Source: Acidobacteriota bacterium
GTDB taxonomy: Bacteria; Acidobacteriota; Terriglobia; Acidiferrales; UBA7541
Assembly: GCA_003166795.1 (NCBI GenBank)
Contig: PMUS01000014.1
Coordinates: 101,589-165,588 of the forward strand
Direction of reading: 5' to 3'
DNA length: 64,000 bases
The position numbers and the translations under genes were made by a program. Shown in pieces: positions 19,387 to 26,228 of the stretch (position 1 is the first letter of the stretch; each line of letters opens with the position of its first letter). A model generated the notes under the pieces. That model was not told where the DNA came from and did no database searches. It worked only from the letters and a program-made list of their open reading frames with translations.

Positions 19387-19752
19387 CGCTGTTCAATCCT
19401 GCTCACATGTCGTGGCTGTGGAACGGGGACCGGGTAGCCCCTGGTTAACCGGTCAGGCCGAGTGCCCGGTATGAAGTTCACTGCCGTTAGCAAGTTGGGG
19501 CAATCTCCCCTAAGTCAGCTCCGTTCCAAATTTACTCTGTTTAGTGTATCGACGACCCAAGCGGGCGCACCGTAGCATCGGTTGCTGCGCCGGAGGATCA
19601 GGCGTCCGGCTCATGGCATGCGTTCGATGCCTGGGCGCCGGGTTGCAATTAAAACCCTGGAGTGTGCACAACGGGACAGACCCTTATCTTGCCGCCGCTT
19701 AACATGGGCCTTCGGAATCCATGCGCTTCCAAACTCTCAGGAGGTAATTAGT
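19387..19752. other. Intergenic region upstream of the LPXTG gene
   Basis: The 366 bp hold no convincing gene. The frame of the LPXTG gene is open back to 19582, but a consensus ribosome site (CAGGAGG at about 19739-19745) fixes the start at 19753. A promoter is expected here; none is clear. Confidence 0.4.
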
Positions 19753-20469
19753 ATGAAGATCGTAAAGACAATTCTCGCAGTACTGGCACTGGCACTGCTC
19801 GGCGCTACGTTCGCTCCCGGCGCTCGGGCTGATGAATGGAGCAAGAAGACCGTTATGACGTTCGATCAACCGATCGAGATCCCCGGCCAGATTCTACCCG
19901 CCGGCACTTACACGTTTGCGCTGGTCGAGTCGCATTCCGACCGGAACATCGTGCGCATTTTCAAGGCGGACGGAACGACGGTGGTCGCCACAATCCTGGC
20001 GATTAACAATTATCGGCTTCACTCAACCGACAACACATCGGTCAAGTTCGCCGAGCGGTCGGGCGATAACCCGGAAGCTCTTAAGGCCTGGTTTTACCCT
20101 GGCGACAACTTCGGTCAGGAGTTCGTGTATCCGAGGCAGCGGGCGGCTCAACTAGCCATTGCAGAAAAGGAACCCGTACCCGCGACGGACACCACTGATC
20201 TGAATACTGCTTCAATCGTCGCGATCACCCCAGAGCAACAGGACGAGCCAATTGCCCAGGCTGTGCAGGCCAATCCGGAAGTAGCACCGACACCGGCTCC
20301 CGCTCCGGCTGCGGCTGCGGTCGCCGCTCCTGTCGCACAGGACACAACTCCCGTGACCGTGGCACAGAACGAACAATTGCCGAAGACGGGCAGCCCGATT
20401 CCTTTGATCGCGCTGCTGGGCCTCGGATCCATCGGCGTCGCGTTCACACTGAAGCGATTCGCCAGGTAA
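19753..20469 (+). CDS. Secreted protein with LPXTG sorting signal
   Basis: This 238-residue protein has a signal peptide (1 to about 26, ILAVLALALLGATFAPGARA). A globular part follows (about 27-140, with IPGQILPAGTYTFALVE and VVATILAINNYRL), then an Ala/Pro-rich linker (APTPAPAPAAAA). The C-terminus is a complete sorting signal: LPKTG (209-213), a hydrophobic stretch IPLIALLGLGSIGVAFTL and KRFAR. Such signals are cut between Thr and Gly by sortase and joined to an amine on the cell surface. A class D sortase gene lies 1.1 kb downstream on the same strand. The role of the globular domain is unknown. Confidence 0.9.
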   Translation: MKIVKTILAVLALALLGATFAPGARADEWSKKTVMTFDQPIEIPGQILPAGTYTFALVESHSDRNIVRIFKADGTTVVATILAINNYRLHSTDNTSVKFAERSGDNPEALKAWFYPGDNFGQEFVYPRQRAAQLAIAEKEPVPATDTTDLNTASIVAITPEQQDEPIAQAVQANPEVAPTPAPAPAAAAVAAPVAQDTTPVTVAQNEQLPKTGSPIPLIALLGLGSIGVAFTLKRFAR

Positions 20470-20495
20470 CATTCATAACGCAACGAAACTCCGGT

Positions 20496-20533
20496 GCGCC
20501 GCGGGCTGATACATTATGCTCAACCCGCGGCGC
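20496..20533 (+). other. Hairpin between the LPXTG gene and the VWFA gene
   Basis: A perfect 10-bp stem (GCGCCGCGGG paired with CCCGCGGCGC) with an 18-base loop ends just before the ribosome site AAGGAG of the VWFA gene. There is no T-tract. It could stabilise the upstream message or lower the expression of the downstream genes. Confidence 0.55.
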
Positions 20534-20547
20534 AAGGAGACTTGCCA

Positions 20548-21546
20548 GTGACTTCGAACATCCGATCGCATCGGTTCGGTCTCATTCGTGGATGCTATCG
20601 CCTCACTTCCCTTCTGCTCGTCTGCGGCTTCGCGGCGTATTCGCAGTCACCGGCGCCGGGTGCTGTTGCTTCAGGCCAATCCGCGATTTCGGTGAAGACG
20701 GAACTGGTCGTGCTGCCCGTTCGAGTGACCGACTCGCACGACGATTTCGTTGCCGGGCTTAATCTGGAAAACTTCCAAGTGTACGAGGACGGACGACTGC
20801 AAAAAATCGCCCTGTTTCAGCGCGGCGACACGCCGGTGACCGTGGGCCTGGTGGTTGACCACAGCCGCAGCATGGGCCCCGAGCTCACGGAAGTGGCCGC
20901 AGCGGTTTCGTCCTTTGCTCAATCCAGCAATCCTCAAGACGAGATGTTCGTCGTGGATTTCAACGATCAAGTCTGGTTCCAACTGCTCGATGGAAAACCT
21001 TTCTCGAACGACCCCGCGGAACTTGAGAAAGCCGTCTCGGCCGTTACCGCAAGGGGACGAACCTCGCTTTACGACGCGGTGGCGGAGGGACTCAACCATT
21101 TGCGGCTTGGCCATTGGGACAAAAAAGCGCTGATTATCGTCAGCGACGGCGGCGACAACGCCAGCCAGCACACCTATTCGCAGATCCTCGCCCTGGCCCA
21201 GCGATCGCAGACCTTAATTTACTCGATCGGTTTGCTCGGCGCGCTCGACGAGGACGAGAACCCGAACGCTCTCAAACGGCTCTGCAAGAATACGGGCGGG
21301 ATCGCTTATTTTCCCGGCTCCGAGGTGCACGTGAAGGATATTTCGACCCAGATCGCCCGCGATCTGCGCGAACAATACACACTCGGATTTACGCCGGAGC
21401 AGACCAACAACTCCCGTTCCTTTCGAAAAATCGAAGTGAAGGTTGCCGCTGCCGGCCGAGGCAAACTTCACGCGCGATCGCGGCCCGGCTATTTCGGCGG
21501 GCAGGAGAATCCGCCGGCCGCGGCGGCCGGAAAGAGCGCGTCATGA
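20548..21546 (+). CDS. Secreted VWFA-domain protein (TIGR03436-like)
   Basis: I start it at the GTG at 20548, which lies 8 bases after AAGGAG (332 residues; the frame is open back to 20494). A signal peptide occupies about 1-33 (LTSLLLVCGFAAYSQS). The von Willebrand A domain shows the metal site: DHSRS (104-108), then TSLYD and SDGGDN further on. The N-terminal part (VVLPVRVTD, NLENFQVYEDG) and the C-terminal part (EQYTLGFTP, FRKIEVKV) match the acidobacterial VWFA-related family. Such proteins bind other proteins outside the cytoplasm. The stop overlaps the sortase start by four bases. Confidence 0.9.
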   Translation: MTSNIRSHRFGLIRGCYRLTSLLLVCGFAAYSQSPAPGAVASGQSAISVKTELVVLPVRVTDSHDDFVAGLNLENFQVYEDGRLQKIALFQRGDTPVTVGLVVDHSRSMGPELTEVAAAVSSFAQSSNPQDEMFVVDFNDQVWFQLLDGKPFSNDPAELEKAVSAVTARGRTSLYDAVAEGLNHLRLGHWDKKALIIVSDGGDNASQHTYSQILALAQRSQTLIYSIGLLGALDEDENPNALKRLCKNTGGIAYFPGSEVHVKDISTQIARDLREQYTLGFTPEQTNNSRSFRKIEVKVAAAGRGKLHARSRPGYFGGQENPPAAAAGKSAS

Positions 21547-22181
21547 ATCTCGGTGGCTACGCGCTGAAAAAAGACCGGCGAATGAGCGCGCTCACCCTTC
21601 GTGGAGCGTGCTTTTTTTTCCTGGCGGCGGGAATTCTGGCGCTCGGTTACGCGGGCTACGTCGTCGCGGACGCACATGCGTATCAGGCGGTTGAGAAATC
21701 GAAATTTGAAAACGTGAGCCGGAGTCAGGTGTTGCAACCCGTGACCGAGGGCGGCGTGATTGGCGAGATGGATGTCCCCCGCCTGGGGATCCAGACCATG
21801 GTCGTACAAGGCGATTCGGCCAAGATTTTGCGGCGCGCCGTGGGCCACATGCCTGAGACGCCTTTGCCCTGGGAATCCGGCAATGCGGCTCTCGCCGGCC
21901 ATCGCGACAGTTTCTTTCGCCCACTGCGAAATATCCGGGCAGGTGACGCGATCACGTTCAAGACGGTCAATGGCGATTTTCAGTACGAAGTGGAATACAC
22001 CGAGGTGGTTCCCGCGAGCGACGTGGAGGTGCTAGACGCATCGAGCGGGCGCACGTTGACGCTGATCACATGCTTCCCGTTTTATTACGTCGGCTCGGCG
22101 CCCAATCGGTTTGTCGTTCGCGCTCGGGAAGTTGGATCGCCAGCGCGGTTCGCCGAACATCCTGACGCGGCTAGCTTCTAG
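21543..22181 (+). CDS. Class D sortase
   Basis: This 212-residue protein has an N-terminal membrane anchor (about 20-42, FFFLAAGILALGYAGYVVADA). The catalytic His is His120 (AGHRD), the catalytic Cys is Cys177 (TLITC), and the likely Arg is Arg189 (NRFVV). YYVGSAPNRF is the class D signature. It should cut LPXTG-type signals and transfer the protein to a surface amine. It is coupled (ATGA) to the VWFA gene, and the LPXTG protein at 19753 is the obvious substrate. Sortases are uncommon in organisms with an outer membrane. Confidence 0.93.
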   Translation: MNLGGYALKKDRRMSALTLRGACFFFLAAGILALGYAGYVVADAHAYQAVEKSKFENVSRSQVLQPVTEGGVIGEMDVPRLGIQTMVVQGDSAKILRRAVGHMPETPLPWESGNAALAGHRDSFFRPLRNIRAGDAITFKTVNGDFQYEVEYTEVVPASDVEVLDASSGRTLTLITCFPFYYVGSAPNRFVVRAREVGSPARFAEHPDAASF

Positions 22182-22402
22182 AAGCTCCGGCACGTTGGCT
22201 GACGGTTGCAGCACGGCGAGTCGCCGCACTCCACAAGGCATCGCAACCTGCCGCTTTTCCGCCATCCAGCAGGAGCTTCGTAGCGGCCCCCACTGCCGAA
22301 TCGAATCACCAGGTGTCCATAAGTGAACAGACACCCGCCTGCGCGCCCACTAAGATGCGGCTCTGTGGGTGCTGTAAAAGACCCAAAGGAGTTAGAAAAT
22401 TC

Positions 22403-22594
22403 ATGCCTTTACTTCAAATCGTAATGGTTTTGGTTGTAGTGGGGGTCTTGCTTTGGCTGGTCAATCGTTTCATACCAATGCAGGGAACGATCAAATCAAT
22501 CCTGAACGCGGTGGTGGTGATTTGCGTGGTCCTGTGGCTTCTGAACATTTTTGGACTCTTTAGTTCGTTCTCCCGGATCCACATCGGGGCGTAG
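22403..22594 (+). CDS. Thivi_2564-like two-helix membrane protein
   Basis: The ATG at 22403 follows AAAGGAG (63 residues). Two membrane segments are visible (IVMVLVVVGVLLWLVNRF and AVVVICVVLWLLNIFGLF) separated by IPMQGTIKSIL, the pattern of the Thivi_2564 family. No biochemical function is known. It opens a run of small membrane proteins of the kind often induced by stress. Confidence 0.8.
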   Translation: MPLLQIVMVLVVVGVLLWLVNRFIPMQGTIKSILNAVVVICVVLWLLNIFGLFSSFSRIHIGA

Positions 22595-22630
22595 CATTTC
22601 ACGCTAAACGCAGAACAGAAGGAGCAAACG

Positions 22631-25439: not shown

Positions 25440-25517
25440 CGGAAGCCTTCGGCTGGTGAAATTTCAAGAGCAATCCGCACAACTTCCGCAGGCGCAATTC
25501 CGATCGTGGAGGTCAGC

Positions 25518-26228
25518 ATGCTGCGTAAATCAATTCTCATCGCCGGTCTGGCGCTCGCCACAGCAACAATTTGCGCGGCAAATAATAAGGAGCAAAGGCG
25601 CCTGGAGAATTCCGGCGTGGTGATGCAGGAAATCATGAATACGCCGGAAAACATTCCCCAAGAGGTTTTGGAGAAGGCGGAGTGCGTCATCGTGTTCCCG
25701 TCCGTTCTGAAGGCGGCGTTCGTGTTCGGCGCAAGCTACGGCCGCGGCGCGATGGTTTGCCGAACGGGCGAACATTTCAGAGGACCTTGGGGCGCGCCGG
25801 CGATGTTTGCGCTGGAGGGCGGAAGCTTTGGGTTTCAAATCGGCGGACAAGCGACCGATCTCGTCCTGCTCATCATGAACGAGAGAGGCGCATCCTCGAT
25901 ACTCGAGAGCAAGATCAAATTGGGGGGAGACGCCTCCGTTGCGGCAGGGCCCGTGGGGCGCGACGCAGCGGCAAACACAGATGCGTACATGCGCGCCGAG
26001 ATTCTCAGCTACTCGCGGACACGCGGCCTCTTTGCGGGCATTTCCCTCGAGGGCTCCACGCTTCGCCCGGATAACGATGCCACCGCGGACGTCTATGGAC
26101 GCAAGCTGACGGCCAGGGAAATCGTGCTGGACGGAAACTTTCGAGTTCCGGCGTCGGGGCGCCACCTAGTTGCCGTACTACAGAGGGGTTCACCGCACAA
26201 CGAATCGAAACAATCCGCAAGCAACTAG
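25518..26228 (+). CDS. SYLF/YSC84-domain lipid-binding protein, secreted
   Basis: I start it at ATG 25518 behind GTGGAGG (236 residues). A signal peptide covers about 1-21 (ILIAGLALATATICAA). The remainder is one SYLF domain: IPQEVLEKAECVIVFPSV, FVFGASYGRGAMVCR, GGSFGFQIGGQATDLVLLIM, LGGDASVAAGPVGRDA and YSRTRGLFAGISLEGS are its conserved blocks. These domains bind phospholipids; bacterial secreted forms are thought to act in the cell envelope. It ends a run of envelope or stress-type genes. Confidence 0.9.
   Translation: MLRKSILIAGLALATATICAANNKEQRRLENSGVVMQEIMNTPENIPQEVLEKAECVIVFPSVLKAAFVFGASYGRGAMVCRTGEHFRGPWGAPAMFALEGGSFGFQIGGQATDLVLLIMNERGASSILESKIKLGGDASVAAGPVGRDAAANTDAYMRAEILSYSRTRGLFAGISLEGSTLRPDNDATADVYGRKLTAREIVLDGNFRVPASGRHLVAVLQRGSPHNESKQSASN

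What the first reader, a model, noticed from the sequence alone, without database searches (positions are those of the whole stretch)
19753..22181. LPXTG substrate, VWFA protein and class D sortase in an apparent Gram-negative
Seen: an LPKTG sorting signal with hydrophobic helix and Arg/Lys tail, a secreted VWFA protein, and a class D sortase with His120, Cys177 and Arg189, all on one strand in 2.4 kb, the last two coupled by ATGA. Known: sortases anchor proteins to peptidoglycan or build pili in Gram-positives and are rare in diderms. Inference: a surface-display or adhesion system with the LPXTG protein as substrate.
Basis: partly seen in the sequence, partly recalled or inferred. Interest (0 to 1): 0.65.

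Follow-up and report, generated by a model that had tools for sequence, protein, structure and literature searches.

The report
One-substrate sortase cassette in diderm Acidobacteriota
A bacterium with an outer membrane carries a three-gene cassette in which a protein-anchoring enzyme of the kind best known from Gram-positive bacteria (a sortase) appears to serve a single partner protein encoded beside it; the pairing recurs across the phylum Acidobacteriota, so it looks like a real but unstudied way of fixing a periplasmic protein to the cell wall.

Summary
The window encodes a secreted protein with a C-terminal LPKTG signal (19753-20469), a secreted VWFA protein (about 20548-21546) and a membrane sortase (21543-22181) with His120, Cys177 and Arg189. 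The genome has LptD, so it is diderm; it has one sortase and one such signal (8e-14; next 0.5). In 399 class genomes signal and sortase occur together in 140, apart in 33 (Fisher 2.5e-70); in a phylum sample all 55 signal genomes have a sortase. Of 100 sortase loci, 93 match the substrate profile. Related copies away from sortases lack the signal, except three at contig ends. The signal consensus is LPxT(A/G)SxxPx5G, mostly LPxTA. The VWFA gene lies beside the sortase in only about half the loci, so it is accessory. Best explanation: a dedicated class-D-like sortase joins a small beta-domain protein to peptidoglycan, probably at meso-diaminopimelate. Surface display or adhesion is unsupported, since peptidoglycan lies beneath the outer membrane. 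A covarying hairpin pairs with the VWFA Shine-Dalgarno, perhaps keeping enzyme below substrate. The sortase misses the curated cut-offs for class D and class GN. No work on it was found in the open-access library. New variant of a known kind.

The parts
19739..19745 (+). Shine-Dalgarno of the substrate gene (AGGAGGT)
   Evidence: read
19753..20469 (+). Sortase substrate, 238 aa: signal peptide (1-26), conserved beta domain (about 28-170), disordered Pro/Ala-rich linker, LPKTG sorting signal, membrane helix, basic tail
   Evidence: AlphaFold2: helix 2-23, strands 29-166, pLDDT below 50 at 203-209, helix 216-237
20377..20466 (+). Sorting signal LPKTGSPIPLIALLGLGSIGVAFTLKRFAR; family consensus LPxT(A/G)SxxPx5G
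   Evidence: only such signal in the genome, E 8e-14
20489..20539 (+). Intercistronic hairpin (4 + 11 bp) whose 3' arm includes GGAG, the likely Shine-Dalgarno of the VWFA gene
   Evidence: fold -35.9 kcal/mol, z -4.2; 17 related loci: 90.6% of cells paired, 6 pairs with changes on both sides, no shuffle reaches the covariation score
20548..21546 (+). Secreted VWFA protein (TIGR03436) with complete MIDAS motif; longest reading starts at 20494
   Evidence: MIDAS D122, S124, S126, T190, D218 (numbering of the long reading) conserved in 49 linked homologues apart from 3 Thr for Ser
21543..22181 (+). Sortase, 212 aa: N-terminal membrane helix and sortase barrel; H120, C177, R189; starts in an ATGA overlap with the VWFA stop

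Best explanation
It is a dedicated, one-enzyme one-substrate sortase system of a diderm. The substrate is exported by Sec, its signal peptide is removed, and its C-terminal helix holds it in the inner membrane with LPKTG on the periplasmic side. The neighbouring membrane sortase cuts between Thr and Gly (Ala in most relatives) through Cys177, with His120 and Arg189, and passes the acyl enzyme to an amine of peptidoglycan or lipid II, most likely the meso-diaminopimelate side chain. The product is a small beta-domain protein tied to peptidoglycan by a flexible linker within the periplasm. The MIDAS-bearing VWFA protein is an accessory, possibly a metal-dependent binding partner. An RNA hairpin pairing with the VWFA Shine-Dalgarno would hold VWFA and sortase output below substrate output. 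Shown: gene order, catalytic residues, the signal, its conservation, its co-occurrence with the sortase, the RNA covariation. Inferred: cleavage, acceptor, location of the product, role of the VWFA protein, effect of the hairpin.
For: One sortase and one signal in the genome. Signal and sortase co-occur in 399 class genomes 140/26/7/226, p 2.5e-70, and 55 of 55 signal genomes of a phylum sample have a sortase. 57 of 70 signals found in that sample lie within 4 kb of a sortase. 93 of 100 sortase loci match the substrate profile. Of 21 family members unlinked or in sortase-less genomes, 18 lack the signal and the 3 that have it sit at contig ends. His, Cys and Arg are kept in all complete sortases compared. 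Closest solved structures are class D sortases of C. perfringens (4d70) and B. anthracis (2ln7), by sequence; by fold 4d70 ranks first. In B. anthracis, sortase C (solved as SrtD in 2ln7, an equation made from my own knowledge) cleaves LPNTA and uses meso-diaminopimelate as acceptor (PMC3297441), which fits the LPxTA majority here. Diderm envelope: LptD.
Against: No biochemical evidence. Catalysis could end in hydrolysis instead of transfer. The acceptor is inferred from distant relatives. 26 of 166 sortase genomes of the class show no signal by this profile, and some sortases stand beside family members without a signal (L286, L294, L141). The function of the beta domain is unknown and it has no solved relative.
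Confidence: 0.75

Rival explanations
1. Processing sortase: the enzyme cuts the C-terminal anchor and releases a soluble periplasmic protein without attaching it.
For: Related copies with the same beta domain and no anchor exist as free secreted proteins, so a soluble form is workable.
Against: A sortase of the nearest class is known to transfer to an amine (PMC3297441). A cell needing a free form could simply lack the anchor, as its paralogues do.
Confidence: 0.12
2. Pilus polymerase: the sortase links substrate copies through a lysine into a fibre, with the VWFA protein as tip adhesin.
For: Gram-positive pilus operons often hold VWFA tip proteins and class C sortases (own knowledge); class C structures are also among the fold matches.
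Against: No lysine is invariant in the substrate family; the nearest, K128, is Arg in the window protein. The VWFA protein has no sorting signal. There is one substrate and one sortase, and a fibre would have to cross the outer membrane.
Confidence: 0.04
3. Surface display or adhesion: the protein is exposed outside the outer membrane.
For: Gram-positive precedent only.
Against: Peptidoglycan is beneath the outer membrane in this LptD-bearing cell; no adhesive domain is recognised in the substrate.
Confidence: 0.05

Closest known systems
Class GN sortase (TIGR03784) with its adjacent LPXTG target in Proteobacteria
   Same: Gram-negative host, one dedicated sortase, one LPXTG target in an adjacent gene (PMC3237569).
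   Different: The window sortase is far below that family's cut-off (95.6 of 158.25 bits). There the target is related to vault protein; here the target is a different small beta-domain protein, and a VWFA protein without a signal is a separate product.
Bacillus anthracis sortase C (structure 2ln7, called SrtD there) with BasI and BasH, and Clostridium perfringens SrtD
   Same: Closest solved sortases by sequence, with 4d70 also first by fold; LPNTA motif resembles the LPxTA majority here.
   Different: Monoderm hosts, different substrates, spore-related function in B. anthracis (PMC3297441); window enzyme is just below the SrtD cut-off.
PEP-CTERM/exosortase and GlyGly-CTERM/rhombosortase
   Same: C-terminal motif, membrane helix and basic tail paired with a sorting enzyme in Gram-negative bacteria (PMC1569441, PMC3237569).
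   Different: Enzymes of unrelated folds; many targets per genome as a rule.
Braun's lipoprotein and OmpA-type tethers
   Same: A periplasmic protein tied to peptidoglycan; one relative in a genome without a detected sortase (L283) has the same beta domain followed by an OmpA domain.
   Different: Different attachment chemistry; no outer-membrane anchor seen in the substrate here.

Membership tests
Sortase superfamily (PF04203, TIGR01076) | Sortase barrel with His, Cys and Arg in the active site, over curated cut-off | tested here: met
   106.3 bits against 26.6 and 75.5 against 39.35; H, C, R in all complete homologues; fold matches
Class D sortase (NF033746, NF058671) | Score over the curated cut-off | tested here: not met
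   122.8 of 165 and 133.6 of 140 bits, although these are the best-scoring classes; all 59 relatives match both models at 1e-10 or better
Class D sortase (NF033746, NF058671) | Cleavage of LPxTA-type signals and transfer to meso-diaminopimelate | not testable with these tools
   needs enzyme assay and mass spectrometry
Class GN sortase (TIGR03784) | Score over the curated cut-off | tested here: not met
   95.6 of 158.25 bits
LPXTG sorting signal (TIGR01167) | LPXTG-like motif, membrane helix, basic tail at the C-terminus, in a protein with a signal peptide | tested here: met
   16.2 bits against 15.9, a bare pass; helix 216-237; family profile E 8e-14
Sortase-built pilus | Conserved lysine acceptor in the pilin and more than one anchored subunit | tested here: not met
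   no invariant Lys; single substrate
Acidobacterial VWFA family (TIGR03436) | Score over the curated cut-off | tested here: met
   191.6 of 81.25 bits; 18 matches of this family in the genome, 17 flagged over the cut-off

The most novel reading that the evidence does not exclude
A phylum-wide covalent tether of the diderm envelope: sortase-anchored beta-domain proteins join peptidoglycan to a partner on the outer membrane or in the periplasm, a sortase-made counterpart of Braun's lipoprotein and OmpA, with the VWFA protein as metal-dependent partner and RNA-set stoichiometry.
Probability: 0.15. Interest if true: 0.75.

Novelty: new variant of a known kind. Interest (0 to 1): 0.5.

Why it matters
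Sortases are taught as Gram-positive tools. Here a sortase and a matching signal track each other across Acidobacteriota, abundant soil diderms with little known envelope biology. It offers a testable case of covalent protein anchoring to peptidoglycan beneath an outer membrane, a new unnamed substrate family, and a simple one-to-one enzyme-substrate pair.

Tried and rejected
Generic LPXTG model TIGR01167 on the genome: weak hits, missed the cassette, and rings in all 14 control genomes, so a family-specific profile was built. PDB sequence and fold searches for the substrate domain gave nothing usable. Conserved neighbours beyond the three genes: none of wide occurrence; malic enzyme and Ysc84 genes recur in a minority. 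The hairpin as intrinsic terminator: no T run follows it. Rfam: no match in 19400-22600. The OmpA fusion was sought in the genus of G019 and was found in that one genome only. Pilus hypothesis: no conserved lysine.

Full report
Observation. The substrate (19753-20469) has a signal peptide, a conserved domain, a Pro/Ala-rich linker and LPKTGSPIPLIALLGLGSIGVAFTLKRFAR at its end. The VWFA ORF can be read from GTG 20494, but GTG 20548 is better placed after GGAG. Its stop overlaps the sortase start in ATGA. The sortase has H120, C177 and R189. Pfam and NCBIfam support sortase and VWFA strongly; the substrate has no Pfam family, only weak DUF2911 similarity.

Host. The window is one contig stretch of a 3.9 Mb, 93% complete genome. 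Named relatives are Acidobacteriota MAGs, many titled Terriglobia or Bryobacterales. LptD is present, so the cell is diderm. There is one sortase in the genome.

Conservation. In 399 genomes of the class 166 have a sortase and 164 a relative of the substrate; 143 have both (Fisher 4e-59). A hundred sortase loci were fetched, taken from the top of the score list and so not a random sample. Ninety-three match the substrate profile within the fetched stretch; the window protein alone finds 73 by phmmer. Forty-nine have a VWFA gene directly beside the sortase; in 36 of these the VWFA stop reads ATGA and in 5 GTGA, the form that allows an overlapping start. Of 80 named loci, 62 show a sortase in the held flank, and 46 hold substrate, VWFA and sortase in that order.

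Signal. From 137 non-identical C-termini the pattern is LPxT, then Ala (109) or Gly (24), then Ser, with Pro at position 9 and Gly at position 15 in 136 of 137. The L/M, P and small-residue positions were required by the search expression used to collect them; Thr 4, Pro 9 and Gly 15 were not. A profile of 46 of these (A2) finds one match in the own genome at 8e-14, the next at 0.5. In the class sample signal and sortase are together in 140, sortase alone in 26, signal alone in 7, neither in 226 (Fisher 2.5e-70). In a phylum sample of 386, 55 of 55 signal genomes have a sortase, 42 of them outside the class. Relatedness of genomes is not corrected for, so p-values overstate the evidence.

Control with paralogues. 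Twenty stretches with family members away from sortases or in genomes without one hold 21 such ORFs; 18 end without a signal, and the three with a signal (L178, L187, L188) lie at contig ends where the sortase would be missing. In some genomes of one other family the sortase stands beside a signal-less member while signal-bearing ones lie elsewhere (L284, L286, L294, L299), so the one-to-one rule is not universal.

Structure. The AlphaFold2 model of the substrate has mean pLDDT 81.5, with a beta domain, a disordered linker and a C-terminal helix; no convincing PDB match. The sortase model has mean pLDDT 90.8 and its best fold match is C. perfringens SrtD 4d70. The catalytic His, Cys and Arg are present in every complete homologue compared; one sequence is truncated. 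The VWFA MIDAS residues are kept in the linked homologues.

RNA element. Between substrate and VWFA genes lies a hairpin (20489-20539) that pairs CUCC with GGAG of the likely VWFA Shine-Dalgarno; z -4.2. In 17 related loci 90.6% of cells are paired, six pairs show changes on both sides, and no shuffle or slide matches the covariation score. The loci were picked for having a similar hairpin (from the list), so this shows conserved pairing among them, not its frequency. The outer CUCC-GGAG pairs fail in part of the sequences. Masking of the Shine-Dalgarno is an inference.

Mechanism and literature. A sortase paired with a single LPXTG target in an adjacent gene is known in Gram-negative bacteria for TIGR03784 (PMC3237569). 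B. anthracis sortase C with LPNTA and meso-diaminopimelate (PMC3297441) is the closest biochemical model. Searches for Acidobacteria with sortase or LPXTG returned no paper on this system; one 2011 genome paper counts sortase genes in Candidatus Solibacter (PMC3174227). Subscription papers are not held, so novelty is not proven.

Noticed in passing
window 20489-20539: Covarying hairpin that pairs with the likely Shine-Dalgarno of the VWFA gene; similar hairpins precede the VWFA gene in related loci; no Rfam family.
   Followed up: yes
L283:1501-2424 (same locus as L189:1305-2228): In a genome without a detected sortase, the substrate's beta domain is followed by a coiled-coil-like stretch and an OmpA domain (PF00691), which binds peptidoglycan in known proteins; seen in one genome only.
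   Followed up: partly
L137:7739-9475 and similar loci: A gene of the malic enzyme family (PF00390, PF03949) lies on the same strand near the sortase in 13 of 100 loci, in L137 between substrate and VWFA gene.
   Followed up: no
L286, L294, L141: Sortase with full active site next to a family member that lacks the sorting signal.
   Followed up: partly
L097, L105, L112: Other N-terminal regions carrying a similar sorting signal beside sortases; in L097 and L105 the gene lies downstream of the sortase.
   Followed up: partly
L201 (CAJCHZ010000106.1): Record titled Betaproteobacteria holds a cassette 61% identical in the substrate to the window's; probably a mislabelled acidobacterial MAG.
   Followed up: no
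window 25506-26228: Ysc84 family gene (PF04366); relatives occur near the sortase in 9 of 100 loci.
   Followed up: no
window 22313-22594: Small membrane protein of the Thivi_2564 family (NF041949) downstream of the sortase; not a conserved neighbour.
   Followed up: no
G000, several contigs: Eighteen matches to the acidobacterial VWFA family in one genome, some in tandem.
   Followed up: no
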